A stretch of DNA of 64,000 nucleotides, from positions 1-64,000 of the forward strand of contig NZ_CP144374.1 in the NCBI RefSeq assembly GCF_040451425.1, in the 5' to 3' direction. The position numbers were made by a program, and so were the translations under genes. Shown piece after piece: positions 8,355 to 21,721 of the stretch. The notes beneath the pieces were generated by a model. That model saw only the letters and a list, made by a program, of their open reading frames with translations. It had not been told where the DNA came from and ran no database searches. The DNA is from Thermodesulfovibrio sp. 3462-1 (GTDB lineage Bacteria; Nitrospirota; Thermodesulfovibrionia; Thermodesulfovibrionales; Thermodesulfovibrionaceae). Position 1 is the stretch's first letter, and each line of letters begins with the position of its first letter.

Positions 8355-8672
8355 CAATAACATATTTACAGCTTGTAAAGTCATAGAGGGTAGGCCAAGG
8401 CACAAGGTAGTAGAGAGTTTTTTAGACAGTTATATACTTGGGCAGATACTTGCAGTGGAGGCAGTATGGAAGAAGCTAAACTTAGATGAGACATTCAATT
8501 AGTGATAGGACTGATACTCAGTGAAGATGACATGCCAATTGGCTATGAAGTATTTTCTGGAAACAGCTTTGAAGGCAAAACAGTAAGCACAATGATAATG
8601 ACTGAGAGATAAATTTTCAATAAACAAGGTAGTGTTTGTTGCGGACAAGGGAATACTTAGCAGGTCTGTGTT
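8355..8672 (+). pseudogene. Remnant of an IS1634/IS4-type transposase
   Basis: The gap between trpC and the defence island holds no intact gene but contains successive fragments of a DDE transposase in shifting plus-strand frames, interrupted by stops. Readable pieces are TYLQLVKS (8358 on), EGRPRHKVVESF then GQILAVEAVWKKLNLDETFN, MPIGYEVFSGNSFEGKT (about 8531-8581) and KVVFVADKGILSRS (to about 8667). The order and wording match IS1634-like transposases, where the Asp of VADKG is a catalytic residue. The remainder and both ends are missing. The fragment abuts the truncated 3' end of the restriction gene on the opposite strand, so the element probably helped form this boundary. About 8245-8354 shows nothing recognisable. 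Confidence 0.75.
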
Positions 8673-9133
8673 AGTATGTCTCCAATGTAGCTATCAATTC
8701 CTTTTGATTCCTCACCAGGGTCTGACAATCTATAATTCGTTCCTTTAAGCTCTGCACCCTTCTTTAAGATTGCCTCCTGAAACCTCAACCCAGCAAAAGT
8801 TTTTACTATAACTAAATCCCTTACCCACTCTTTTACAGTATCCCTGTCAATCTTATTTATAGCATCTTTGAGTTCTTTTAATTTTTGAAGAATCTTCTCC
8901 GTGGCATTCTTTATTGCATCTGGCTTTTTCTTCAAGTATCATTCTTCCCGTTCTTGTAGTGTTTTTCCTTCAAACTCCTGAATAAGCTCGCTCATCTGAC
9001 CAACTACCTTTGGTCGTGTTCCCTGTGCATTTTGATTTGCCAGGTTAATGAGTGGTGCTACATATTTTGGAAATTCAGGTGTTTCAATATCTAAATATTT
9101 TCTAATCTCTTCAATACTTATTTTTATTTTCAT
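8657..9133 (-). pseudogene. Broken MjaI-like type II restriction endonuclease
   Basis: Two minus-strand reading frames, 9133-8939 (64 codons) and 8935-8657 (92 codons), are in the same frame, separated only by a TGA at 8939-8941 and one Tyr codon. Together they read as one protein with NLANQNAQGTRPKVVGQM and VRDLVIVKTFAGLRFQEAIL, which I recognise as the MjaI restriction endonuclease family (CTAG-type). The TGA probably replaced a Trp codon. The 3' end breaks after GIDSYIGD and runs into IS-remnant sequence, ending in the unrelated tail ILTQTC, so the C-terminal part is lost. The gene follows herA by 6 bases. Almost certainly inactive. The family name is from memory, not a search. Confidence 0.7.
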
Positions 9134-9139
9134 ATTTAG

Positions 9140-10906
9140 CTATCTCATAAATCTATTTACTCTTAAAAATTCTTCAGGAGTATTATAAACTGTGAGGAAA
9201 AGTGGGGTACCAGCGAAAGAAAGAGGCGAAACTGGACCAATTGTCATAAAAGCATATTGTCTTGAGGCAATGTCAAAAGCACTATGTGGGTCACGAAAGG
9301 ATTGATAGAGTTTAAGGGCATTAGGGTCACCACCAACAATTTCTTTTAAAGACATAAATTCTGTTCCCAAAGCCAGACCAAAACCAAAGAAGAAGATTCT
9401 CAATTGGCCAATAATCTCTTTATGTAAACTTGATAGGGTCTGACTTATAAACAACCATCCAAGTCCATATTTTCTTGTAGTTCTCACTGCGTCAAGAAGT
9501 GAAAGTCTTACACTTTCCTGTTTTTCATTTTCAATTTTTTCCCTTGGGGCTAATCTATGGGCTTCATCTAAAATCACAAGAGTATTTAAAAATCTATTTT
9601 CACGATAAGCACGCTCAGCTGAATAAGTTAGTCCATCTAATAATCGTTTTATTACCAATGCCTGAATAGTTTCATTCCAAAAAAGACCTGAGGCCATTTC
9701 TCTGGATAAATCTATAACCACAACAGGACGACGACTTCTATCAAGATCAAATGTTTGTTGAATTAGGTTATCAACACTAATAGCTCCTCTACGATCTCTT
9801 CTGAATAACTCAGTTATTGGCCCCCAATAATTATTGAAGAATTCATCTCGATTTGCGTCTTGATAAACTGTGTTGAATCTATCACGAGACTGCTGGGTTC
9901 TATAAAATTGCATCTGAACATTTCCATCACCAAGAATTTGCCATGCACGGTTAAAAGATTGGCGGTCATATAAATTTTCTAACGTAACTCGTCCTCTTTG
10001 TAATCTTTCTGCTAAAACCTCGGAGGCTATTCTTCTATTTTCTCCTTTTGGAATCGAGAGTCGCTCAAAGAATGGTGATTCATAAAGGATTTCACTAAAA
10101 AGGTCCCATCTATCCAAAACCAAATCTCTAACACTTCTAATTACCACCTCTTTATTTAACAATGAAAGAACACTGGATAAATTCAAAGGAAATCCTTCTG
10201 CTCTCATCTCTCCTCGTGCATCCTTTGAAAACTCACCTTGAGGGTCTATTACAAATATAGCCATATCAGGGTACCTTGCATAGGCTAAGAGAATCATCTT
10301 TGCCAGAACCGACTTCCCAGAACCCGTTTTCCCAAAGATTCCGAGATGATATGCCTCTCCAGCTCCGTGTGGTCCTGTCCCAAAATGCTTGAACCAGAGT
10401 GGAAGTTTTGGTGTAGAACCATAAACATGACCTAAATAAAATATTTCATCTCTGTACAGTTCTAACAACCTATCCAATATCTCGTCAGTTGCTAAATGGA
10501 TGGAAGTACCTGTAGCAGGAACAGTTCCTAAAATACTCGGTTCAAATCTATTGCCATTGTCACTAAATACCGCACTTACTGTCATTTGTCCTAAATGGGT
10601 ATCTTGCTGTCCACTTACAGGATTGACTTGACCCCTTTGCCTTGCAAGAGACCTCATTGTTGGGTCTTCAAGCCAGATATTCTTTAGTTGAACCTCTGTT
10701 ATCTGTCCTAATGCGTAATGGGGTTTACCATCCTGAGAAAATCTAAAGAGTGCAAGCTCTCCGACCAATTTCTTCTCAACAGCAGTGCCGAGGATATCCA
10801 AAGAAAGTTCGCTGGTAGAAGAAGGAGAGCCTATTGTTCCAATACGCTCAGAGGAGCTGATTAATTGCTCAAGGTTTGTTCTTTCGTAAAACATACTCTT
10901 TTCCAT
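9140..10906 (-). CDS. HerA-like hexameric DNA-translocating ATPase
   Basis: HerA ATPases form hexameric rings that thread DNA and work with the NurA nuclease in end resection in archaea and in several bacterial defence systems. Visible features are an N-terminal beta-rich HAS-barrel-like region, Walker A GKTGSGKS (about 192-199), DPQGEF (a HerA/FtsK-family motif), Walker B TLVILDEAH (about 442-450), a sensor region LFISQTLSSL and a C-terminal lid. I chose the ATG at 10906, not the upstream one at 10939, because GGAGGA (10911-10916) precedes it with good spacing. It overlaps the methyltransferase gene by 38 bases. Its partner NurA is encoded two genes upstream in the same operon. Confidence 0.9.
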   Translation of the reverse strand: MEKSMFYERTNLEQLISSSERIGTIGSPSSTSELSLDILGTAVEKKLVGELALFRFSQDGKPHYALGQITEVQLKNIWLEDPTMRSLARQRGQVNPVSGQQDTHLGQMTVSAVFSDNGNRFEPSILGTVPATGTSIHLATDEILDRLLELYRDEIFYLGHVYGSTPKLPLWFKHFGTGPHGAGEAYHLGIFGKTGSGKSVLAKMILLAYARYPDMAIFVIDPQGEFSKDARGEMRAEGFPLNLSSVLSLLNKEVVIRSVRDLVLDRWDLFSEILYESPFFERLSIPKGENRRIASEVLAERLQRGRVTLENLYDRQSFNRAWQILGDGNVQMQFYRTQQSRDRFNTVYQDANRDEFFNNYWGPITELFRRDRRGAISVDNLIQQTFDLDRSRRPVVVIDLSREMASGLFWNETIQALVIKRLLDGLTYSAERAYRENRFLNTLVILDEAHRLAPREKIENEKQESVRLSLLDAVRTTRKYGLGWLFISQTLSSLHKEIIGQLRIFFFGFGLALGTEFMSLKEIVGGDPNALKLYQSFRDPHSAFDIASRQYAFMTIGPVSPLSFAGTPLFLTVYNTPEEFLRVNRFMR

Positions 10907-11828
10907 CTTTTCCTCCAAATTCAAATAATCCGGGAGCATTAGAATTAAAAAACTCCTTAATGCGTCTTTCTGCTAATTTTACATATTTTTCGTTTATTTC
11001 GTATCCTATATAGTGGCGGTTAGTTTTTATTGCTGCAATTGCGGTCTGTCCACTACCCATAAACGGGTCTAAAGCAACTTCTCCCTCAAAAGTGTAAAGT
11101 TGGATTAACCGGTAAGGCAATTCAACTGGAAAAGGTGCTGGATGTCCAACTTTGGTTGCTGGTTCTGCAGCAAAGGTCCATACGCTTTTGGTAAATTCAA
11201 GAAATTCTTCCTTAGACATAGTGCTTTTTCTTCCGAGATTTTCCCTTGAAAACATACCTTTAGAAAAGACCAAAATATACTCATGAATGTCTCTCAGTGT
11301 TGGATTTTTAGCAGAAAGCCAGCTACCCCAAGCAGTTGATGGACTTCCACTTGACGCTTTATTCCATATAATTTCACCTCGCATTAAAAATCCTAACTCA
11401 AGCATATCCTCAATTATAAAAGCATGTAGTGGGATATACGGCTTTCTTCCAAGGTTAGCGATATTGATGCATGCTCTTCCCCCTGGCACAAGAACCCTTT
11501 TTACCTCCTTCCACACTCGTTTCAAAAATTCTCTGTATTCATTGAGTGTAAGATTTGCGTCATATTCCTTTCCAACATTATAGGGAGGTGAAGTAACCAT
11601 CAGGTGAACGCTATTATCTGGCAGTTCATCCATCTTTTCGCTTGTCTTGCAAAAAATTTTGTCAATAAACTCTAAAGGGATAGGGTTTTCTACATATTCT
11701 GTTATCTCTTCTTTCGGAAGTCCTTCATATAACTTGCTCGTGTAGAAAGGAGTAGAGTCATGATTAATCCTCCCAGGAGACCCAAAGGTGCTCGTTTTTG
11801 TCCCATATTTTCTACGATTGACTTTCAT
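10869..11828 (-). CDS. DNA methyltransferase, TSPPY (amino-methyl, probably N4-cytosine) class
   Basis: A 319-residue beta-class amino-methyltransferase: catalytic motif IV TSPPYN at about 79-84, followed by the target-recognition region, then the AdoMet motif DPFMGSGQTAIAA near 258 and GYEINEKYVKLAERRI. Ser rather than Asp before PPY is more usual for N4-cytosine methylation, though not decisive. The N-terminus (GSPGRINHDSTPFY) resembles methylases of restriction systems with four-base palindromic sites. The start codon immediately follows the stop of the ThaI-like endonuclease gene, so the two are a likely cognate pair; the broken MjaI-like gene downstream is the alternative partner. The 3' end overlaps herA. 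Confidence 0.88.
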   Translation of the reverse strand: MKVNRRKYGTKTSTFGSPGRINHDSTPFYTSKLYEGLPKEEITEYVENPIPLEFIDKIFCKTSEKMDELPDNSVHLMVTSPPYNVGKEYDANLTLNEYREFLKRVWKEVKRVLVPGGRACINIANLGRKPYIPLHAFIIEDMLELGFLMRGEIIWNKASSGSPSTAWGSWLSAKNPTLRDIHEYILVFSKGMFSRENLGRKSTMSKEEFLEFTKSVWTFAAEPATKVGHPAPFPVELPYRLIQLYTFEGEVALDPFMGSGQTAIAAIKTNRHYIGYEINEKYVKLAERRIKEFFNSNAPGLFEFGGKDGKEYVLRKNKP

Positions 11829-12503
11829 TTAGTCCTCTCTCCATAGGTCAATCCATCTTTTATAGGCATTAAATTTTATCTCTGTTCTCTGCCAATTTAT
11901 TTCAATCTTCCTAGAGTTACTATCTTCAATCAAACTCAATAATGCTTCTTTAGTGATTTCAACCCCTCTTGGATTTGTTCCTGGTTTAGGAAGTTTTATG
12001 TACCTTTCTCTACCTATTTTATCAAAAAGCCGTTTTTGAGCCTCCAATGGAATGTAATAAAATCCCCCAACATCATTCCAATTTATCTGAACAAGTAGAA
12101 TATCACAATGAGGATAATAATTTTCACGGAATTCTTTTGCTTTCTGTGCGTCAACAGTCCATATCAGTTTGACACCACTAAAACTTTTACCTGTAATTGT
12201 CTTTATTGATACTGGTTCGCCAAATAATTTCACATCTACCTCTGGTTCGGTTATAGGGATCTCAGTTTCAACATTTGCTTCACCAAATTTATAAATAAGC
12301 AAGGCTACAATTATCCTTTCTCTAACTGACCCAACCTCCATTCCAGTTTTGCCCGCCCTTGAACTTTCTAATTCTGCAAGTTGAAACAGATAGGGCAACT
12401 GTCTTTTTATCTTCTCTACAAGTTTCTCATCTTCAAATATTTCTATCAAGCGATTGGATTTTGCTCCTTTACCTACAGCCAGACCGTCAGATTTTTCTTT
12501 CAT
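11829..12503 (-). CDS. Probable type II restriction endonuclease, ThaI-like
   Basis: A 224-residue protein resembling the ThaI restriction endonuclease family (CGCG cutters): AELESSRAGKTGMEVGSVRERI, then a candidate PD-(D/E)XK core with EIPITEPEVDVKLFG followed by PVSIKTITG, giving Glu/Asp and Lys candidates for metal binding, and CDILLVQINWND. It starts with ATG at 12503 behind GGGAGG, which overlaps the end of nurA, and its stop abuts the methyltransferase start. That layout, endonuclease then methylase with zero spacing, is typical of a restriction-modification pair. The family assignment is from memory of motif wording; specificity is not established by the sequence. Confidence 0.55.
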   Translation of the reverse strand: MKEKSDGLAVGKGAKSNRLIEIFEDEKLVEKIKRQLPYLFQLAELESSRAGKTGMEVGSVRERIIVALLIYKFGEANVETEIPITEPEVDVKLFGEPVSIKTITGKSFSGVKLIWTVDAQKAKEFRENYYPHCDILLVQINWNDVGGFYYIPLEAQKRLFDKIGRERYIKLPKPGTNPRGVEITKEALLSLIEDSNSRKIEINWQRTEIKFNAYKRWIDLWRED

Positions 12504-12505
12504 AT

Positions 12506-13657
12506 TTACCTCCCACTTTCAGTTCTATAGCCATGCATACTGAAAAAAATCTCTCCTATATCCCCCTGGTGTAATTCTGTCATCCTTCTGGTAGCAGTTT
12601 GCCTGAAGGCGGGAATAGCACTTCCAAGATGCTTTACCATTCGGTCTGCTATATAAAGAGGATATGGTTCCATAATCCCGGGGGTTCCAGACTGATATTT
12701 AAGACCTTGAAGCAATACTGCTATCCGAGAATTATTTGTGGCAATAGAAGATGCCATCTCAATTCTAAAAACTGGGGTCCAGTTATGAGGTCTGTAATAC
12801 ATAACATAAATCCTATTTATTGCTGAGATAACCTCATCTTTTAATCTTTCAATTTCTTTGTCGTTAATAGGAATTCTTAAATGCCAGGGTTGTTGAGGTT
12901 CTTCTAATGGGATTGGCGAGGTAAATTCACCCGGAGACAAAATCGCAGTCAAAATCGCTCTGTCATCATAATTAGCCGACCAACCGAGGTTCTTACCTAA
13001 CTCCCTTCTTGTAGTGTACTTCGGCATACCCACCCATAATTTATCGGTCCTTGCTGACTCCAAAATGATTTTATAATCTTTAAGAAACTGCTTGAATCTT
13101 TCTATCAATTGTTTGCCTACTTCTGTTTGATTACCTTCATTCTCCCATTCAATAACTCTGTTTATTGCCTGATTCATATATATCAACGGTGTTGTAAGAG
13201 AACCATCTAAGAAAACTATATCGTGAGGTGCCTTTGCTGCGAGTTCAAGTTCCATCTCCATCATCAATCCTCTTATAACCGTGCCTATATCAGGGTTATG
13301 CTTTTCGGGGTGAATAAATACTCTATGATGAGGCTTCTCCCAGTATCTTTTTTCAGAGGGTGGAGTCAATCCTTCAATTGCAACCGCAGCACAAGCAGCA
13401 AAATCAGTTGCTAAAAGCCTCTCCACTGCATAAGAGCCATCTACCCCGCAAGTCGTTGGTATGCCCGGATACCCAAGTTCTGTATCCAGTTTCAAGATAT
13501 TTTGTTCTTGTAGTTGCTTCCGTATTTTTGCCTTATTTTCCTGGATTTCCTTAAAAGAAGCATATAACTGCTCACCAACCGATTCACTTTTGGAAAGCAT
13601 CTCTTCAACAAGTGCCTCAGGCAATTCAGCAAAAGGTGTTTGCTCAGGTTTTTCCAT
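12506..13657 (-). CDS. NurA-family nuclease
   Basis: NurA is an RNase H-like, Mn-dependent 5'-3' exonuclease/endonuclease that docks on HerA. The 383-residue product has the two hallmark Asp motifs: CGVDGSYAVERL (Asp at about 73) and IVFLDGSLTTPL (Asp at about 151), with an acidic MEMELELA helix between, and a C-terminal region with RIEMASSIA and a late TRRMTELHQGD segment. The ATG at 13657 has GAGGA six bases upstream and is preferred to the ATG at 13663. It sits 9 bases after the sacsin-like gene and its own end supplies the ribosome site of the next gene. HerA is encoded downstream in the same operon. Confidence 0.85.
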   Translation of the reverse strand: MEKPEQTPFAELPEALVEEMLSKSESVGEQLYASFKEIQENKAKIRKQLQEQNILKLDTELGYPGIPTTCGVDGSYAVERLLATDFAACAAVAIEGLTPPSEKRYWEKPHHRVFIHPEKHNPDIGTVIRGLMMEMELELAAKAPHDIVFLDGSLTTPLIYMNQAINRVIEWENEGNQTEVGKQLIERFKQFLKDYKIILESARTDKLWVGMPKYTTRRELGKNLGWSANYDDRAILTAILSPGEFTSPIPLEEPQQPWHLRIPINDKEIERLKDEVISAINRIYVMYYRPHNWTPVFRIEMASSIATNNSRIAVLLQGLKYQSGTPGIMEPYPLYIADRMVKHLGSAIPAFRQTATRRMTELHQGDIGEIFFSMHGYRTESGR

Positions 13658-13666
13658 TTTCATTCC

Positions 13667-16600
13667 TCACAATTTAAAATTAACTGGATGTGCATAAAGC
13701 TTCCCTTCTTTCCAGAGTTTGATTGGATTTCTCAATATACGAATTTCAGCATCTTTTTTCCCAGCATTTGATACAACATAAAAAGAATATTTCACTCCCT
13801 CATTTTGGTCAAAAAGTTTCCTCGCAAATTCCCACTGAGTTCCTGTAACCTCTATTAATTCTTCTCCTTCCTGTGTTTTGGTTTTAACCTCAATGTATTC
13901 CACATCAGTTCCATTTTTTCTTATAACGAAATCATAACCTTTTCCCTGGTCTTGTTGCATATTCAGCCATATAATTTCTAATTCTCCATTATTAGCATTT
14001 ATAACTTTAAATCCTGAATCCGTATCCTCAATTTTTCCCTCTTTTTCATACTTTTTCTTAAGGGCATTATAAACATATTTTTCACCCCACTTACCTATTG
14101 CTTTTTTATCAATAGTTTCTCTTTTATTATTCTCTTGCCCAACCCTATCCACATATCCATTTTCCTTTGCTTGTTCCTGTGCGTCTGCGATTTTAACCTT
14201 TTCTGCTTGACCTGATAGATCAGGAGTAATAATTTTTTCTGGTTCTACTTCTTGTATTTTTACAAAGTCCACATTGGGTTCAACTTCTGGTATCCACTGC
14301 TCTTTTTCCTTTTCTTCCTCTAATAGTTTCGTTTCTCTTTCAGAAAGAATTTTTTCAAGTTCATCAGGACTAAGATTATGTTTTTTTGCAATCTCCAATA
14401 TTTTTCTTTCATCTTCCGGCAGTTGTTCTATAATCTCTGGTTTGAATCCAAGAACTTGCTTTAGAACCTCTATATTTGCACCATCTTTTTTGTAACTATC
14501 GGCTAGTTCCGAAAAAGTGATTTCAGAAGGCTTTCTAAAATTACCATTTTTGTCAATTAACCATGCATTTTGTTTGAGTGTTTTTAGAAATTTTGCTTCG
14601 AATCTCGCACTATGTGCTGAATAATAAAACCATTTGTATTCACCTTTAAAAAATTCTTGTGCTTGCCGACTACTTAGATGCTCAATAGCTTTTAGGAGTA
14701 ATTTCCACAGCAAGTATGATTTTTCGGGTGTTATGTTATTCATAAAATTATCCAAACCTTCATAGTCATAATTTTTTTGATAAATATCATAGGTGCAACC
14801 GCTATTACCTCTTAGTTTAAATTTCTCCTCCCATGTTAAATTGCCTTCAACCTCAACGCGTCTTGGTTTATCTTCAACTCCCAATTCTTCCAAAAATTTT
14901 TTCACCATTCCCTTGTCAAACCTTTGAAAAATTTCCTCAGAAACAAAATATACTGATTGATAACCTTCAAAATAGTTTTTCAAATCCTCATCAGGGAAAT
15001 AAGCTTTACTTCCTTTTACCAGAGCTTCAGTTTTATTTTCATTGTTCTTAATTGCTAAAATAAAATTCGCATCTGACAATTCTTCAATAAATTCACTCTT
15101 TTTACCTGATTGTACGGTTTCTGATTGTACGGTTTCATATCCTCTCAAAAACTTTGCAAAATCATCAAAATACTTTTCATCTTTTACAGGATTCTCTGCC
15201 TTATATTTAGGTAAAATAAATTCTCTAATCTCAGCAAAAATGTCTGGTTTTGTTAACCCAAGTTCTTTTAAGAACTTTAAAGATTGTTCCTTTTCAGTAA
15301 GAACACGCTTAACAGTCTTATATTCGGATTTTGTTTCCCCTGGCAAGTAAACTTGAACGTTTCCATTATTATCAAATGGTGCTATATGCTCGTTGTTTTC
15401 CAATCTGATAATAGGTTTGGTTCTTAAAATACCTTTTGAATATCCCCTATCACTCCATAAAGATTGCTGGTCTAAAAGACGACTATAGAAATCAATTATC
15501 CATTCATCAGATTTTGTCTGTAAGAATTCAGTAGTTATTTTTCTCGCAAAACTTTCAAAATCAACTTCAGGAACTCCAAGTTCGTTAATCAGATAATCTC
15601 TGAGTTCTCGTGTTTTATCATAGGTTATATTTGTATCTAACCAGCATTTTTTAGAAAATAATTTCTGAAGATCGCTGCTGTTTAAAAACTCGGTTAATTC
15701 TTTACCACGTGCTAATAAAGCGTCGCTTGCTTTAGTGTATGTCCCATCAAAAGAAGGTAAAAGTTCCTCTGATTGTAACTTTGCTTTTACTTTATTATAA
15801 ATAACTGCGTAAATGTATTCTGCTTCTTTATGCTCTGGATCAATAGGCAAAATATTTAAAAAATTAACATCAAGATAACCTAAATTCTTGATTACTAATA
15901 AGCTTTCAGCAACAAGATTTCCGATTTCTTCCACTATCGCCTTATTTTGTTCATCTTCTAAAGGGATGTTTTCCCTATTCGGGGTTGTTCTTAATGGACC
16001 TTGAATAAGAAAATTAAGAAAGGTGACTTTCTCGGTAGGGAAAAATACAAAAAGTTTTGAATTTAGTTCTGGAACGATTATCTCTTTATTATTTTCATCT
16101 TTGTCCAGTTTATATGCTACTTCAACCCATAATTCTTTATCCTCTATGTTTATTGGTTTTCTAAAAACCAAATATTCCTCGGTAATACTTGATGACACTA
16201 TTGTTACTCTCTTTATATTTTTGTCCCCATGTATATTTTTACTTTCTTTTAAATAGTGCCCGGAAGAAGATGGGGTTTCCCATTTAATTTCATTGATATT
16301 CTTTAAAAACAATAATGTTTTTAAATCTAACTCCTCAAGTTTTTTCTTCGTAAGATTGAAAATTTCTTCAGGTGACCGATATTTATGATTAAAAGGCAAA
16401 CGAATTAACGTTTTGTCTATCTTTTCGTTGGAATTTATCTCAACTGGAACTACAAAATCTTCAATTTTTATTTTATATTCCCCAGAAAAAATATAAGGCG
16501 TTTGAGTAATTGCAAAAACTGACTTGAACCCAACCCCAAATTTACCAATTGCATTTAGGTCTTCTTTCTTTTTAGAAATGCCAATTCCTGTGACTCCGTC

Positions 16601-16831
16601 AATATCCTCCAGATCAAAATCTTTACCATTATGATAAAACTCAAATTTATCTTTAAAAAGTTTGATAATTACCTCAGTTGCTCCTTCATCTTCGGCATTT
16701 TGTAATAATTCATAAATAAAATGAGAAGGATCGGCATATAATCCCGCCAGAATACTATCAAAATCAAAATTGTTTTCTTTTGAAGAATTTACCCATTGTT
16801 TTCGTTTGTTTATGAGGTCTTTTAATTCCAT
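13667..16831 (-). CDS. Sacsin/Hsp90-like ATPase with C-terminal DUF3883 nuclease-like domain
   Basis: A 1054-residue protein. The N-terminus is a GHKL ATPase of the sacsin type: HFIYELLQNAEDEGATEV supplies the Glu/Asn/Asp of the N-box (Asn 45), DGVTGIGIS the second motif and AIGKFGVGFKSVFA (95-107) the glycine-rich lid. A long helical middle of unknown fold follows, then a charged Glu/Lys linker (about 830-900) and a C-terminal DUF3883 domain: KWGEKYVYNALKKKYE, a central YDFVIRK and EYIEVKTKT, which fits a PD-(D/E)XK nuclease core (Glu, Asp, Glu-x-Lys). The start ATG directly follows the druA-like stop (TAAATG). Such ATPase-nuclease proteins recur in defence islands; the mechanism is unknown. 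A GHKL switch driving a nuclease is inference. Confidence 0.8.
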   Translation of the reverse strand: MELKDLINKRKQWVNSSKENNFDFDSILAGLYADPSHFIYELLQNAEDEGATEVIIKLFKDKFEFYHNGKDFDLEDIDGVTGIGISKKKEDLNAIGKFGVGFKSVFAITQTPYIFSGEYKIKIEDFVVPVEINSNEKIDKTLIRLPFNHKYRSPEEIFNLTKKKLEELDLKTLLFLKNINEIKWETPSSSGHYLKESKNIHGDKNIKRVTIVSSSITEEYLVFRKPINIEDKELWVEVAYKLDKDENNKEIIVPELNSKLFVFFPTEKVTFLNFLIQGPLRTTPNRENIPLEDEQNKAIVEEIGNLVAESLLVIKNLGYLDVNFLNILPIDPEHKEAEYIYAVIYNKVKAKLQSEELLPSFDGTYTKASDALLARGKELTEFLNSSDLQKLFSKKCWLDTNITYDKTRELRDYLINELGVPEVDFESFARKITTEFLQTKSDEWIIDFYSRLLDQQSLWSDRGYSKGILRTKPIIRLENNEHIAPFDNNGNVQVYLPGETKSEYKTVKRVLTEKEQSLKFLKELGLTKPDIFAEIREFILPKYKAENPVKDEKYFDDFAKFLRGYETVQSETVQSGKKSEFIEELSDANFILAIKNNENKTEALVKGSKAYFPDEDLKNYFEGYQSVYFVSEEIFQRFDKGMVKKFLEELGVEDKPRRVEVEGNLTWEEKFKLRGNSGCTYDIYQKNYDYEGLDNFMNNITPEKSYLLWKLLLKAIEHLSSRQAQEFFKGEYKWFYYSAHSARFEAKFLKTLKQNAWLIDKNGNFRKPSEITFSELADSYKKDGANIEVLKQVLGFKPEIIEQLPEDERKILEIAKKHNLSPDELEKILSERETKLLEEEKEKEQWIPEVEPNVDFVKIQEVEPEKIITPDLSGQAEKVKIADAQEQAKENGYVDRVGQENNKRETIDKKAIGKWGEKYVYNALKKKYEKEGKIEDTDSGFKVINANNGELEIIWLNMQQDQGKGYDFVIRKNGTDVEYIEVKTKTQEGEELIEVTGTQWEFARKLFDQNEGVKYSFYVVSNAGKKDAEIRILRNPIKLWKEGKLYAHPVNFKL

Positions 16832-17977
16832 TTATAACCCCTTTAACATTTTCTCTACTTTCTGAAAAAATTTATTTTTATCAAACTCTCTCCATTCCAG
16901 CATTCTTTCTGCTCTAGGTATTGCCCATCTCTCTTTCCAATAATCAACTAACTTGTCAAAAGGACGATCTACCCAAATAGGTTTTTCGCTATAATGGATA
17001 ATTTCTTTTAAATTCTTGACTAGTGGAAATAGATAAAATTCTCGTTTAATTCCATGGTATTCAAATTTAGGTAACCCGAGACATTTTAGCCCCAGGCTTA
17101 TCAATTTAAGTTTTCTTGACGGACCGTGTCCGTATCCCCTGGTGACATCAATACCCTTCTGGGATAAAAAGCTTAAAATTTCTTGATATAATTCTTCTGG
17201 AATATGAAATGTGCCTGAACCCTGAGTATAACCTAAAGACATTGCTACCGTCTCTCCATTGTATTTTAAGCGGTTATACAGGCTACTTTTACCAAATGCA
17301 CTCGTGGTGGTAATAAATAAGAGTTCAGGTTTTAATTTTCTCCCTTTAATGATTGATATATAATTCCTGTATTTCCTCTTATAAGCTTCTCTTATTTCAT
17401 TGCAGGTTAAAGCAAGAGCAACCATTTTTCCACCCAGTATCTCATTATAAGGAGGTAGAGCACCAACTCGTTGTGCCTGCATAGACATATTTATCCAGAT
17501 ATCTAACTCGTCCTTTGGTATATCCAGGTAATTATCCCGGACTGACATCTTTAGCACAGGGCTTTGTAAACAAATCAAACCAAAAGGTGCATCATGTGTT
17601 TTATCCCATAACAAAAATCTCATCTGGCGACCGTAGGAGCGTTGAAACGGAATACTCCACCATACTAAATTCCACCAGCGGAATAAGATTTCTTCAAGAG
17701 AACCTGATTGAACCTCTCTTAATTCTAAGGAAATCTCCTCAGGTATAATTTCAGAACCATTTTTACAATAATTTTTCACTTTCTTTATAGAATCTATCAA
17801 AAAATTTCTATGCAAAGATAGTTGCTCGAACCTTGCCTTTTGCTGAATCCGACGAAATGTTGTTTTATTATATTCAGCTGGTCTCACGTGGGGATTTATT
17901 TTAAACCCTTGTTCTTTTAAGACTTTGATAATTTTTTTCTTAATTTCTATTTCAGAAGAATTTAATTTTGTTTTCAT
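16832..17977 (-). CDS. DruA-like protein (DUF4338, Druantia-associated)
   Basis: A 381-residue protein of the DUF4338 family, named DruA in the type I Druantia anti-phage system. Recognisable elements are GRQMRFLLWDKTHDAPFGL, LQSPVLKMSVRD, AQRVGALPPYNEILGGKM, a basic helix before ELLFITTTSAFGKSSLYNRL and GYTQGSGTFHIPEELY. The biochemical activity of DruA is not known to me. The large helicase DruE that defines Druantia is absent from the window, so this is DruA used outside canonical Druantia. The start ATG overlaps the stop of the upstream MjaI-like fragment (ATGA) and is followed immediately by the sacsin-like gene. Confidence 0.78.
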   Translation of the reverse strand: MKTKLNSSEIEIKKKIIKVLKEQGFKINPHVRPAEYNKTTFRRIQQKARFEQLSLHRNFLIDSIKKVKNYCKNGSEIIPEEISLELREVQSGSLEEILFRWWNLVWWSIPFQRSYGRQMRFLLWDKTHDAPFGLICLQSPVLKMSVRDNYLDIPKDELDIWINMSMQAQRVGALPPYNEILGGKMVALALTCNEIREAYKRKYRNYISIIKGRKLKPELLFITTTSAFGKSSLYNRLKYNGETVAMSLGYTQGSGTFHIPEELYQEILSFLSQKGIDVTRGYGHGPSRKLKLISLGLKCLGLPKFEYHGIKREFYLFPLVKNLKEIIHYSEKPIWVDRPFDKLVDYWKERWAIPRAERMLEWREFDKNKFFQKVEKMLKGL

Positions 17978-18046
17978 TTCTTTCCCTTAAATTCCTGAAT
18001 ACGCTCGCCCATCTGACCCACTACTTTAGGTCGTGTTCCCTGTGCA
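17974..18046 (-). pseudogene. Short fragment of a second MjaI-like restriction gene
   Basis: The 69-base gap between the TdeIII-like gene and the druA-like gene is filled by an open minus-strand stretch reading NAQGTRPKVVGQMGERIQEF then GKK and a stop. It matches the N-terminal part of the broken MjaI-like gene at 8960-9040, about 87% identical over roughly 70 bases. It has no start codon and begins exactly at the end of the upstream gene, so it cannot be a gene on its own. It is a recombination scar or the relic of another MjaI-family gene. Confidence 0.7.
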
Positions 18047-18820
18047 TTATTTAAATCTTGAAAAATATTCATCTATTTCTGGCCTCAATTCTATTCCTAC
18101 CCTTTCAAAACAATTCAAAAGTTCTTCATAAGCACCTTCTCCTCCAAGAAAATCCCAAAACTCCTTTGCTACCTTTAATTCATTTTCTAAATCCAACATC
18201 CCTTTCAGTGTCCATCTTTCATAAGGTTTAGGCTCATAAGGATTATAAGGAATGGCAATGTAAGAATGGACATTTGCATCTGGGTATTTTAATAAATAGA
18301 TTGCTACCCATTCTAAAAGTGTCTTCTTAAAATCTTTGAAATTGCCAATATTCGGCTTGGCTGTTTTTAAATCAAATAAATGTATTGCTCCATCATTAGT
18401 TTTTACACATAAATCTACTTTTACAGTCTTTAGCTTATTTATTTTACCCATAGTAGCCACTTTTCTTATTCTTTCAATTTCTTCCATTTTATTTGGATTT
18501 CTTCCAATAGTGAGATCATTCATAATGTGCTGAATTTCAATCTGGGCTTGTTCAGTTATTTCATTTCCTACTTCAAATTGTTTCTGTGCGGTGGGAAATC
18601 TCAAACTTGCCAATGTTTCAGCTACAGGCTCAAAAATAGAAGTACCAAAAGTAGTGTTTAAAGAGTGAATAAAGGAAAATAGTGCCATTCTATCACGACC
18701 AAGCAGGCGATAATGGAATGGCATATTACTTGTCTCTGGCTTATATGTTAAAAGTTTATTTCTTAAACTTTCTCTAATAGTATTTTCAATCTTTTTTATT
18801 TGTTCCTGAGGGAGAGGCAT
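18047..18820 (-). CDS. Probable type II restriction endonuclease, TdeIII family
   Basis: A 257-residue protein that I recognise as TdeIII/MjaII-type restriction endonuclease (GGNCC specificity known for the family). Characteristic wording is PFHYRLLGRDRMALFSFIHS and TTFGTSIFEPVAETLA. A PD-(D/E)XK-like core follows: KVDLCVKTNDGAIHLFDLKTAKPN, with Asp and Asp-x-Lys as metal ligands. The ATG at 18820 is preferred to an upstream TTG/ATG extension because AAGGAAGGA lies 5 bases before it and the longer form would run through the methyltransferase. It follows the methyltransferase by 2 bases, forming a restriction-modification unit with one or both methylases upstream. Confidence 0.7.
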   Translation of the reverse strand: MPLPQEQIKKIENTIRESLRNKLLTYKPETSNMPFHYRLLGRDRMALFSFIHSLNTTFGTSIFEPVAETLASLRFPTAQKQFEVGNEITEQAQIEIQHIMNDLTIGRNPNKMEEIERIRKVATMGKINKLKTVKVDLCVKTNDGAIHLFDLKTAKPNIGNFKDFKKTLLEWVAIYLLKYPDANVHSYIAIPYNPYEPKPYERWTLKGMLDLENELKVAKEFWDFLGGEGAYEELLNCFERVGIELRPEIDEYFSRFK

Positions 18821-18822
18821 TT

Positions 18823-20427
18823 TTATCCTTCCTTTAAATGAAATATTGATTCTGAATAAGGTGTTTCCCTGTCTTTCTCTACTCGGCATAAAACAGGTCG
18901 TTTAAATTCCTTAACAATCTTCATTCCAGCTAATTCTGCAATCTTTGGATAAAGATTAAATTTATCATTAGCCACCAAAAATACATCATAGTCGTCTTGG
19001 AGATACTTTTTGCAATTTATAAGCACCTCAGCTACACCTTTAATATAAGAATTCCTTTGCTCTTCCCCCTGACCTTTGGATAGAGGCCCTATCTCTAATT
19101 CATCATTACGTTCAAATCCAAATATCTCATATGCATACGCATGTTGTTCGTGGTAATCAATAAGCCCAACATAAGGTGGACTTGAAAATATTCCTTTTAT
19201 CTTTTGCCTTAATAACAATTCTCCAAACTCCGGATTTGCTTTTTTAATTTCTTCATAAATATCTATTGTTCTACTATCCCCGGTTAAACAGATTTGAAAT
19301 GTATTGGTTCTTAACTTATCAAATTCTTTAAGCCGAGTAAGTGTATCTCTTGTATAAAAATCCCACCATTTTTTGATAGAAAATATTGGTTTACAGATTT
19401 TTCCATGCTTTTTGCAGTAGTAGGTAGTGGTAACAGGTTCTTTTAATGTTGCAAGGTCAGAATGGGTAGTTGCTCTACATGAGCGGGCAGTTCTGCTTAA
19501 AATGATAGTTAGGACATTTTTTACATCTATGTTATTTATTTTTTTAATTTCTTGCGATAAAAAATCTATCTCTTTCCTCACAGGATCTAAAAACCACTTA
19601 TCTAAAAAAGTTTCATTTTTATCCTGTTTTATCTTGATTTGATACTTTTGTACCAGCTCATTATAAATAGTAAGAAATTCTTTTTCTTTATCTTTTGCAT
19701 ATTCATTTTCTTTTATTGTTCCATTAGCAACTTTTCTTTTATATTCCGGTGAGGGGAAATATTTATTATTAAATTTTGTAAGTTCCGACAGTAAATGTTC
19801 TTCAAAGAGAATATTATTTTTGGTCTTCTGAAATTCTTTTAGTCTTGAATTCAATTCACGAATAGTATCTTCAATTAAAATTAAATTATGCTTTTCAACT
19901 TTTACATTGGAAATCAAGGTATTGAAAAAAGAAATATCTATTCCGATGGCATGCATACCTAATTCATTTGCTTGGACTAATGTTGTTCCACTTCCACAAA
20001 ATGGATCCAATACTATATCGCCTTTATGAAAATATACCTCTTTTTTAAACTCATCCGTATGTGAATCAAGGAAATATTCAACCAATTGAGGGATAAATTT
20101 TCCTTTGTATGGATGTAATCTATGAACATGTTTTGTCCTTTCCGCTTCCGTATATTGAGCAAATGATAAATGCCAATTGATATCCTCTCCTAATATCTTT
20201 TGCCAGTTTTTTTCTTTTGAAAAAGAATCATAATAATTTTTTAGTTCCTCTATATCTACAAGTGGATTACCATTACTACCGTATTTTTTTAATCTCCCAT
20301 ACTGAATTAGATATGATATATTTGAGATGGTAACTTTGCGATTCAAATAATTAGAAGCCCAGATACTGGCTTCCTTCAAATTGATAAGTTTCTTTCCCCA
20401 ATTTTCAAACAAGGTCTTCTGCTCCAT
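18823..20427 (-). CDS. DNA methyltransferase with N-terminal HTH-like region
   Basis: A 534-residue amino-methyltransferase with AdoMet motif I VLDPFCGSGTTLVQA (about 118-132) preceding the catalytic motif IV FSSPPYVGLIDYHEQ (about 435), i.e. the alpha/gamma-like order, unlike the other two methylases of the island. The first 70 residues look like a MerR/excisionase-type helix-turn-helix (LKEASIWASNYLNRK, PLVDIEELKNYY). The long middle (160-420) would hold target recognition. The ATG at 20427 follows GAAGGTG; an upstream in-frame ATG at 20442 is less well placed. It overlaps the preceding methylase by 23 bases and lies 2 bases before the TdeIII-like endonuclease, its likely partner. Confidence 0.85.
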   Translation of the reverse strand: MEQKTLFENWGKKLINLKEASIWASNYLNRKVTISNISYLIQYGRLKKYGSNGNPLVDIEELKNYYDSFSKEKNWQKILGEDINWHLSFAQYTEAERTKHVHRLHPYKGKFIPQLVEYFLDSHTDEFKKEVYFHKGDIVLDPFCGSGTTLVQANELGMHAIGIDISFFNTLISNVKVEKHNLILIEDTIRELNSRLKEFQKTKNNILFEEHLLSELTKFNNKYFPSPEYKRKVANGTIKENEYAKDKEKEFLTIYNELVQKYQIKIKQDKNETFLDKWFLDPVRKEIDFLSQEIKKINNIDVKNVLTIILSRTARSCRATTHSDLATLKEPVTTTYYCKKHGKICKPIFSIKKWWDFYTRDTLTRLKEFDKLRTNTFQICLTGDSRTIDIYEEIKKANPEFGELLLRQKIKGIFSSPPYVGLIDYHEQHAYAYEIFGFERNDELEIGPLSKGQGEEQRNSYIKGVAEVLINCKKYLQDDYDVFLVANDKFNLYPKIAELAGMKIVKEFKRPVLCRVEKDRETPYSESIFHLKEG

Positions 20428-21721
20428 AATTTTCACCTTCAATATATTCTAAAAACTTTGTCTTATACTTATAAGACATTGCCATATCCACATCCGCCAG
20501 AGCATTTTTAATCAAATGTGCATTTATGAATGTTTTTTTCCATAAATAGAGATAGCAAAGTAAGCGGTTTTTCTCATCATATTTGATACTGTTATCAAAT
20601 TTTAAGAAGACTTTTTGCCCTTTGGTTTTTTCTTTCAGAAATTGAATTGCTTTTTCCTTCTTTTCTACTATTTCTTTTACACCTAATAACTTAATTTCCA
20701 GTCCGTTATTTAAGAGCAATATCTCTGGGCTAATAATTTCTTTCACTTTATGATAGTTTTTTCTTTCATAATGGGAATTGTCTATTTTTGAGCCAAATCT
20801 CAATTTCTTTGGATCAACTTTTTTATCAAATTTTATAGGGTCTTTAAAAATATAGGGGAGCTTTTTTATCTCTTCTTTGAAATCTACCTTTGATTCTTTT
20901 TGTTTAATTATTTCAAAAGTAGCATCTTGAAAAACATTGCTCTGATTAATACCAAGTTTTTCTTTTATGATTGGTAAGAAATCTTCGTTTATTTCATAGC
21001 CAATAGAGTTTCTATTCAAGTTTTTAGCAGCTAAAGATGTTGTCCCACTACCAAGAAATGGGGCAAGAACAGTATCACCAACAAAGCTAAACATCTTAAT
21101 AAGCCGTTTTGGCAACTCTTCAGGAAACATCGCAAGGTGTTTATCCTGTTTTTCACCCGGGAAGTTCCAGTGCCCTGTAAAGTATTGATTCCATTCCTCA
21201 TCCGTTAATCTTGATTGCTCTTTAATCTCTTTACTTACCTTTGGAGGATTGCCATACTTCTTAAAAATCAAAATGAATTCATAATCTAACTTGAGAATGC
21301 CATTTCTTGGATAAGGGTAAGAACCCATAACTGTTGCACCACCCGTTGTATGGCATGTAGTCACTTTCTGCCAGATAATAGCACCCATATAATCGAAGCC
21401 TGCGCTTTCGCAGAACTTGATGATTTCCGTCCTTATTGGAATTACTTTATATCTTCCGTAATAAACCGAACGAGCAAACTGGTCTCCGATATTGATACAC
21501 AATCTGCAACCTTTATGTAGAACACGATAGCATTCATTCCAGACCAAATTAAGATTGTTTATATATTCTTCATAAGTATCGTTAAATCCTATCTGTTTTC
21601 CATTCCCATAATCTTTTAACTGCCAATATGGTGGAGATGTAATAATAAGATGCACGGATTCATCTGGAAGTTCTTTCATCCATCTTGAATCTCCGATGAT
21701 TATTTTGTGGGTAGTTTTCAT
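20405..21721 (-). CDS. DNA methyltransferase fused to an SNase-like C-terminal domain
   Basis: A 438-residue protein. Residues 1-265 form a beta-class amino-methyltransferase with motif IV TSPPYWQLKDYG (about 29-40) and, later, the AdoMet motif VLAPFLGSGTTSLAA, in which the usual Asp of DPF is Ala. Residues about 310-430 have the pattern of a staphylococcal-nuclease fold: GLEIKLLGV, a helix with FLKEKTKGQKVFLKFD, then NRLLCYLYLWKKTFINAHLI and a final helix. At the positions of the SNase catalytic Arg35/Asp40/Glu43 (RLIGVDTPE in active enzymes) this one reads KLLGVKEIV, so the domain is probably non-catalytic. It is the first gene of the island operon; no clear Shine-Dalgarno is seen. Confidence 0.82.
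   Translation of the reverse strand: MKTTHKIIIGDSRWMKELPDESVHLIITSPPYWQLKDYGNGKQIGFNDTYEEYINNLNLVWNECYRVLHKGCRLCINIGDQFARSVYYGRYKVIPIRTEIIKFCESAGFDYMGAIIWQKVTTCHTTGGATVMGSYPYPRNGILKLDYEFILIFKKYGNPPKVSKEIKEQSRLTDEEWNQYFTGHWNFPGEKQDKHLAMFPEELPKRLIKMFSFVGDTVLAPFLGSGTTSLAAKNLNRNSIGYEINEDFLPIIKEKLGINQSNVFQDATFEIIKQKESKVDFKEEIKKLPYIFKDPIKFDKKVDPKKLRFGSKIDNSHYERKNYHKVKEIISPEILLLNNGLEIKLLGVKEIVEKKEKAIQFLKEKTKGQKVFLKFDNSIKYDEKNRLLCYLYLWKKTFINAHLIKNALADVDMAMSYKYKTKFLEYIEGENYGAEDLV

What the first reader, a model, noticed from the sequence alone, without database searches (positions are those of the whole stretch)
9140..17977. DruA + sacsin/DUF3883 + NurA + HerA: candidate undescribed defence system
Four genes not usually described as one system sit in one tight minus-strand operon: a DruA-type DUF4338 protein, a 1054-residue GHKL ATPase with a DUF3883 nuclease-like tail, NurA and HerA. 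Gene borders are TAAATG, 9 bases or overlapping, which indicates co-translation. Seen in sequence: the motifs and layout. Established: HerA-NurA resect DNA ends; DruA belongs to Druantia, normally with the large DruE helicase, which is missing here. Inference: the GHKL protein senses infection or structure and licenses DNA degradation by HerA-NurA and its own nuclease, with DruA as a further factor. Flanking restriction-modification genes mark self DNA.
Basis: partly seen in the sequence, partly recalled or inferred. Interest (0 to 1): 0.85.

Follow-up and report, generated by a model that had tools for sequence, protein, structure and literature searches.

The report
DruA-NurA-HerA core with swappable cargo
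The real unit is a three-gene module (DruA, the nuclease NurA and the DNA motor HerA), found across bacteria and archaea and probably a defence against invading DNA; other defence genes, including the sacsin-like one, have been slotted into the borders between its genes.

Summary
Comparative data change the unit. DruA-NurA-HerA is the conserved core. It is contiguous in all 9 other Nitrospirota genomes with an intact contig (one of them with a single cargo gene between), and in most of 72 loci from about 20 phyla (52 of the 67 not cut at a contig edge carry DruA). The sacsin/NOV protein (PADLOC TmtA-like) has close relatives that sit alone; it occupies the DruA|NurA border in only three known loci, one archaeal. 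The core has two gene-border slots holding different genes in different genomes: sacsin/NOV or a pentapeptide protein; ThaI R-M, GmrSD, or a NucS-like plus BrxD-like pair. DruA models confidently as a GNAT fold; its best solved match, tied with other GNATs, is phage Mu Mom, a DNA-modifying enzyme. No paper in the open library joins DruA or Druantia with NurA or HerA, and DruE is absent, so this is not Druantia. Best reading: an undescribed DruA-HerA-NurA anti-invader system with embedded cargo. Defence is inferred, not shown.

The parts
16832..17977 (-). DruA (core gene 1), 381 aa, GNAT-fold protein
   Evidence: Pfam PF14236 3e-72; AlphaFold2 model pLDDT 91.6 with 44 sequences; VIA matches are GNAT proteins, top phage Mu Mom Z 10.8, tied
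13667..16831 (-). Sacsin/GHKL ATPase with NOV_C PD-(D/E)xK-like tail, 1054 aa: cargo in slot 1 (DruA|NurA border)
   Evidence: Pfam SACS, NOV_C; PADLOC TmtA 9e-94; solo in 12 other genomes of the phylum; same slot in L069 and L075
12506..13663 (-). NurA nuclease (core gene 2), 385 aa
   Evidence: PF09376 4e-14; D75, D153 and D340 invariant and E138 nearly so in 51 sequences; D75 aligns to the VDGS aspartate of a solved NurA, 3tai
11829..12503 (-). ThaI-type restriction endonuclease: cargo in slot 2 (NurA|HerA border)
   Evidence: PF15514 4e-100; missing at this border in close relatives L057, L058, L071
10869..11828 (-). DNA methyltransferase partner of the ThaI endonuclease: cargo in slot 2
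   Evidence: PF01555 2e-49, PADLOC MTase_II 2e-140
9140..10939 (-). HerA DNA translocase (core gene 3); by homology its start may lie about 45 bp further in
   Evidence: PF01935 2e-12; most similar solved chains include anti-phage HerA proteins
9620..10222 (-). Variable central segment of HerA (about residues 240-440, between Walker A and Walker B)
   Evidence: mean pairwise identity falls to about 50% in places against 79-98% on either side among close relatives
18047..18889 (-). TdeIII-type restriction endonuclease (neighbour, not core)
   Evidence: PF09520 2e-90
18823..20442 (-). DNA methyltransferase next to the TdeIII enzyme (neighbour, not core)
   Evidence: PADLOC MTase_II 7e-232
20405..21721 (-). 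DNA methyltransferase with SNase-like tail (neighbour, not core); homologue next to an intact MjaI-type endonuclease in L069
   Evidence: PF01555 3e-44, PF00565 1e-6; L069
8245..21903 (.). Whole 13.6-kb island lying between trpC (IGPS) and an indolepyruvate oxidoreductase gene; empty site in two genus mates
   Evidence: G052 and G166 have the two host genes about 20 and 50 bp apart

Best explanation
The thing itself is a three-gene module, DruA-NurA-HerA, that moves between distant microbes and most likely protects the cell against invading DNA. Shown here: the three genes stay together in fixed or permuted order across about 20 phyla, are sporadic within the genus, and their borders serve as slots for other defence genes. 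Inferred from the families: HerA forms a ring-shaped ATP-driven DNA pump with NurA as its nuclease, so together they thread and degrade duplex DNA. Inferred: DruA, a GNAT-fold protein shared with Druantia and with some DndF proteins, controls or targets that machine (by modifying a protein or DNA, or by sensing infection), as it may do for another DNA motor, DruE, in Druantia type I. The sacsin/NOV protein and the ThaI pair are passenger defence systems using the same transcript, not steps of the DruA-NurA-HerA reaction.
For: Core: in 396 Nitrospirota genomes NurA relatives occur in 10 others; in all 9 with intact contigs DruA, NurA and HerA follow in that order, the tenth is cut at a contig end. 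All 13 intact full-length DruA genes in that survey lie in a cluster with a HerA-type gene, in three divergent versions. Of 72 loci in named genomes, 67 have HerA within 400 bp of NurA and 52 carry DruA; in the NurA tree the DruA label changes 7 times against 16.6 in shuffles. Horizontal spread: NurA is 79-89% identical across several phyla; HerA of this type is present in only 4 of 16 genus genomes; clean empty site. Slots: DNA alignment shows sacsin lying exactly between the DruA stop and NurA start, and slot 2 exactly between NurA stop and HerA start; cargo includes GmrSD (PADLOC HEC-06), ThaI R-M and a BrxD-like ATPase, known defence families. PMC12988326 reports that several Hma-embedded candidates, HEC-06 among them, were antiviral in assays. 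Motor: HerA-DUF4297 is a solved anti-phage pump-nuclease (PMC11291478).
Against: No phage test exists. Genes near the triad in other phyla are mostly ordinary: among 100 neighbours no PADLOC family matched more than 2 and few defence families appeared, so general defence-island location is not shown. In Nitrososphaera the same NurA-HerA clade sits beside Mre11-like and Rad50-like genes, a repair context. 15 of 67 usable loci lack DruA, mostly archaea and Thermomicrobium. Most relatives are metagenome bins, so some cross-phylum cases could be mis-binned contigs.
Confidence: 0.6

Rival explanations
1. A horizontally spread DNA-repair or recombination module: HerA-NurA resects ends, and DruA regulates it; there is no immune role.
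For: HerA-NurA is the archaeal end-resection pair; the same clade is linked to Mre11-like and Rad50-like genes in L093; surroundings in other phyla are mostly housekeeping.
Against: Sporadic within the genus (4 of 16), no Mre11-Rad50 here, DruA partner, embedded restriction and GmrSD cargo, and a variable HerA segment. The function of bacterial HerA-NurA is itself disputed (PMC9960219).
Confidence: 0.2
2. One reading: one four-gene defence system in which the sacsin/NOV ATPase senses infection and licenses HerA-NurA, with DruA as a further factor.
For: DruA-sacsin-NurA-HerA in exactly this order recurs in a deltaproteobacterial bin and in Ferroglobus; the embedded sacsins form one clade, support 83/83.
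Against: Sacsin relatives are solo in 12 genomes; the core lacks sacsin in the large majority of loci; the slot holds an unrelated pentapeptide protein in G205 and nothing in G194 and L071.
Confidence: 0.1
3. A mobile element: DruA helps transposition and HerA-NurA processes DNA ends; the defence genes are simply cargo of the element.
For: Short DruA-family proteins sit beside IS66 and other DDE transposase genes; cargo varies; a clean empty site and 68-bp direct repeats flank DruA..HerA.
Against: No intact transposase or integrase was recognised in the window island; the 68-bp repeats are pieces of an MjaI endonuclease gene and only 88% identical, not element ends; only chance-length repeats were shared by the island's two ends.
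Confidence: 0.08

Closest known systems
Druantia type I (DruA-DruB-DruC-DruD-DruE)
   Same: Shares DruA: plasmid-borne loci annotated DruA, lying with large DEAD/DEAH helicase genes, are 32-34% identical to this DruA. DruA with a DNA motor.
   Different: No DruE here, which is the one component shared by all Druantia types (PMC13192584); motor and nuclease are HerA and NurA.
HerA-DUF4297 and other HerA-effector anti-phage pairs
   Same: HerA ring motor plus nuclease partner; anti-phage HerA proteins are among this HerA's best solved matches (PMC11291478).
   Different: The nuclease is NurA (RNase H-like, from general knowledge) rather than DUF4297 or Sir2, and DruA is added.
HerA/FtsK capture systems and BREX-related capture (BRC) systems
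   Same: HerA/FtsK translocase combined with nucleases and, in BRC, a GNAT protein (PMC10853773, PMC12839542). DUF4338 is called a GNAT domain fused to some DndF.
   Different: Neither paper's main text mentions DruA or NurA; BRC has PglZ, BrxC-like, TGT and DUF4007 parts not found here.
Archaeal HerA-NurA(-Mre11-Rad50) end resection
   Same: NurA next to HerA.
   Different: No Mre11-Rad50, with DruA, horizontally mobile, not universal in the genus.
Hma-embedded candidates (HEC, guilt-by-embedding)
   Same: Defence genes placed inside the operon of another system; GmrSD cargo matches HEC-06.
   Different: The host operon is DruA-NurA-HerA, not Hma.
Tiamat / PADLOC TmtA
   Same: The sacsin/NOV cargo matches PADLOC TmtA, 9e-94. 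That TmtA means Tiamat is from memory.
   Different: The best profile stretch covers residues 17-773 of 1054; not shown to act alone here.

Membership tests
Druantia | DruE helicase-nuclease (shared by all types, PMC13192584) | tested here: not met
   No DruE-like gene in the island; no hit in the genome to PF09369 (MZB), taken from memory as a DruE domain
Druantia | DruA (type I) | tested here: met
   PF14236 3e-72, PADLOC DruA 9e-90
HerA-DUF4297 / HerA-Sir2 defence pairs | HerA-family ATPase | tested here: met
   DUF87; Walker A GKTGSGKS and Walker B ...DEAH conserved
HerA-DUF4297 / HerA-Sir2 defence pairs | DUF4297 or Sir2 effector beside HerA | tested here: not met
   The partner is NurA
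HerA-NurA end resection (Mre11-Rad50 linked) | NurA beside HerA | tested here: met
   Adjacent in relatives; split by ThaI R-M in the window
HerA-NurA end resection (Mre11-Rad50 linked) | Mre11-Rad50 neighbours | tested here: not met
   None in the island; present in L093
NurA | Catalytic acidic residues | tested here: met
   D75, D153 invariant, E138 nearly invariant in 51 sequences; D75 aligns to the solved NurA. The C-terminal position that reads AH in L191 and L189 reads AD here
DNA-modifying GNAT (Mu Mom) | GNAT fold | tested here: met
   VIA Z 10.8, rmsd 4.0, 180 residues, to 8bv8; other GNATs tied
DNA-modifying GNAT (Mu Mom) | Sequence kinship to Mom | tested here: inconclusive
   hhalign of 44 DruA against 12 Mom sequences finds nothing (probability 0.3%)
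DNA-modifying GNAT (Mu Mom) | Modified adenine in host DNA | not testable with these tools
   needs nucleoside mass spectrometry
Type II R-M (ThaI type) | Endonuclease and methyltransferase adjacent | tested here: met
   PF15514 4e-100 next to PF01555 2e-49
Tiamat / TmtA | Matches TmtA profile | tested here: met
   9e-94, best stretches within residues 17-773
Anti-phage defence system | Protects against phage | not testable with these tools
   needs phage challenge

The most novel reading that the evidence does not exclude
DruA is a Mom-like GNAT enzyme that chemically marks the cell's own DNA, and HerA-NurA pumps and degrades DNA that lacks the mark: a restriction-modification-like system built from unrelated parts, with DruA playing the same self-marking role in Druantia.
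Probability: 0.1. Interest if true: 0.88.

Novelty: new variant of a known kind. Interest (0 to 1): 0.62.

Why it matters
The function of DruA is, to my knowledge, unknown and the role of HerA-NurA in bacteria is disputed (PMC9960219). A module that ties the two together across bacteria and archaea makes both questions testable in one small operon, and suggests that DruA is a general partner of DNA motors (DruE in Druantia, HerA here). The two gene-border slots also give a second host, besides Hma, for finding new defence genes by what is embedded in it; three of the slotted proteins (the pentapeptide protein, the NucS-like one, and the 361-aa one in L088) match no PADLOC model.

Tried and rejected
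Four-gene obligate system: rejected on solo sacsin relatives and sacsin-free cores. Druantia membership: rejected, no DruE. Viral contig scan with the sacsin protein: no relatives. Phage records: only Pelagibacter phages hold weak DruA relatives. DruA-Mom kinship by sequence profile: none found. NurA-HerA fusion in L104: an artefact of an overlong ORF. General defence-island enrichment: not seen among 100 neighbours. The 68-bp direct repeats as element ends: they are MjaI endonuclease gene pieces, 88% identical. First DruA model (pLDDT 76) gave only weak GNAT matches; repeated with 44 sequences. Foldseek alone gave no E below 0.001 for either model.
Full report
Observation. The window starts at base 1 of a complete 1.82-Mb genome; its relatives are Nitrospirota. 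On the minus strand, 21721 down to 9140, nine genes follow each other with tiny gaps: methyltransferase M1, methyltransferase M2, TdeIII endonuclease, DruA, sacsin/NOV, NurA, ThaI endonuclease, methyltransferase, HerA.

What is conserved. The sacsin/NOV protein was sought in 396 genomes of the phylum: 12 others have it, and none was found with DruA, NurA or HerA beside it (a few contigs are short). NurA was sought in the same genomes: 10 others, and in all 9 with intact contigs DruA, NurA and HerA follow in that order, in one with a single cargo gene between DruA and NurA. DruA (PF14236) was sought too: the 13 intact full-length genes all lie in a cluster with a HerA-type gene, in three divergent versions; the middle gene of one version has no Pfam hit but shows NurA-like DG, RDG and RAH motifs. 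One broken copy (G325) has no HerA nearby. Shorter DruA-family proteins lie beside transposase genes in the two cases examined.

Breadth. A scan of one genome per species with the NurA profile gave 72 loci from about 20 bacterial and archaeal phyla by record title. Counting with profiles rebuilt from these: HerA lies within 400 bp of NurA in 67; DruA lies upstream in 46 and downstream in 6; 15 have no DruA, and 5 more are cut at a contig edge. In the NurA tree the DruA label is strongly clustered (7 changes against 16.6 in shuffles). The closest relatives, 70-89% identical in NurA, come from many phyla including an archaeon, which means recent transfer; mis-binning of metagenome contigs could account for some.

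Slots. Close relatives without cargo (L071, G194) let the insertion points be read from DNA alignments. Sacsin lies exactly between the DruA stop and the NurA start; the ThaI pair lies exactly between the NurA stop and the HerA start. Slot 1 holds sacsin in the window, L069 (Deltaproteobacteria bin) and L075 (Ferroglobus), and a pentapeptide protein in G205. Slot 2 holds ThaI R-M in the window, GmrSD in L068 and L077, a NucS-like (weak match) plus BrxD-like pair in G057 and an unknown 361-aa protein in L088. The three embedded sacsins group together with modest support (83/83), so one acquisition followed by transfer is likely.

Island. In two genus mates (G052, G166) the host genes trpC and the oxidoreductase gene, which flank the island here, lie about 20 and 50 bp apart: the 13.6 kb were gained or lost as a block or in steps at one site. 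HerA of this type is present in 4 of 16 genus genomes.

Parts. HerA keeps Walker A and B; its most similar solved chains include anti-phage HerA proteins and TdpA, ahead of the chain named HERA (4d2i). Its central segment falls to about 50% identity in places among close relatives whose flanks are 79-98% identical; NurA and DruA vary too (troughs of 55 and 52% away from their ends), but without such a long block. This is what an arms race could leave, but relaxed constraint or domain replacement is not excluded. NurA keeps its acidic residues. DruA has 25 invariant residues in 44 sequences and a confident model with a GNAT fold; Mu Mom, which modifies adenine in DNA, is first but tied, and profile comparison finds no sequence kinship. 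PMC10853773 also calls DUF4338 a GNAT domain.

Mechanism. Shown: gene content, conservation, transfer, slots. From established families: HerA-NurA couples DNA translocation to degradation (PMC9960219); HerA-DUF4297 shows that a HerA motor plus nuclease can be anti-phage (PMC11291478). Inferred: DruA controls or targets this machine. Plasmid loci annotated DruA lie with large DEAD/DEAH helicase genes, so DruA seems to partner different DNA motors. Sacsin/NOV and ThaI R-M are most simply independent passengers.

Known or new. Full-text searches of the open library found no paper with DruA and HerA, or with Druantia and NurA; 'NurA, HerA, DUF3883' gave none. PADLOC has no model that hits this NurA. 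Subscription papers and most preprints were not searched. I rate it a new variant of a known kind: HerA-plus-nuclease defence joined to DruA, with embedded cargo.

Limits. No phage data; neighbourhoods in other phyla are mostly housekeeping, which weakens the defence inference; the repair reading keeps about one chance in five.

Noticed in passing
window 8600-9133 (-): Broken MjaI-type restriction endonuclease gene (in-frame stop) just downstream of HerA; an intact MjaI-type endonuclease lies next to a homologue of M1 downstream of HerA in L069.
   Followed up: partly
window 17981-18048 and 8964-9031: 68-bp direct repeat, 88% identical, flanking DruA..HerA; both copies are pieces of an MjaI endonuclease gene.
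   Followed up: partly
window 20405-21721: DNA methyltransferase with a C-terminal staphylococcal-nuclease-like domain (PF00565, 1.4e-6).
   Followed up: no
L195:1073-3416, L196:335-2786, L244:3216-7116: Short DruA-family proteins beside IS66 or other DDE transposase genes, and an IS66 element just upstream of a plasmid DruA: DruA alone is not a marker of defence.
   Followed up: partly
L093:9953-16947: Nitrososphaera NurA-HerA of the same clade beside Mre11-like and Rad50/SMC-like genes, no DruA: possible link between repair and the DruA-linked version.
   Followed up: no
L038:11315-19850: Sulfuricurvum plasmid with a NERD protein and a DUF3883 sacsin relative directly upstream of qatABCD.
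   Followed up: no
L243:1051-2349: Pelagibacter phage Mosig carries a DUF4338/DruA-family gene.
   Followed up: no
window NurA residue D340; L191:5416-6702; L189:9728-10891: C-terminal AH motif seen in the divergent NurA of L191 and L189 is AD in all 51 aligned NurA of this clade.
   Followed up: no
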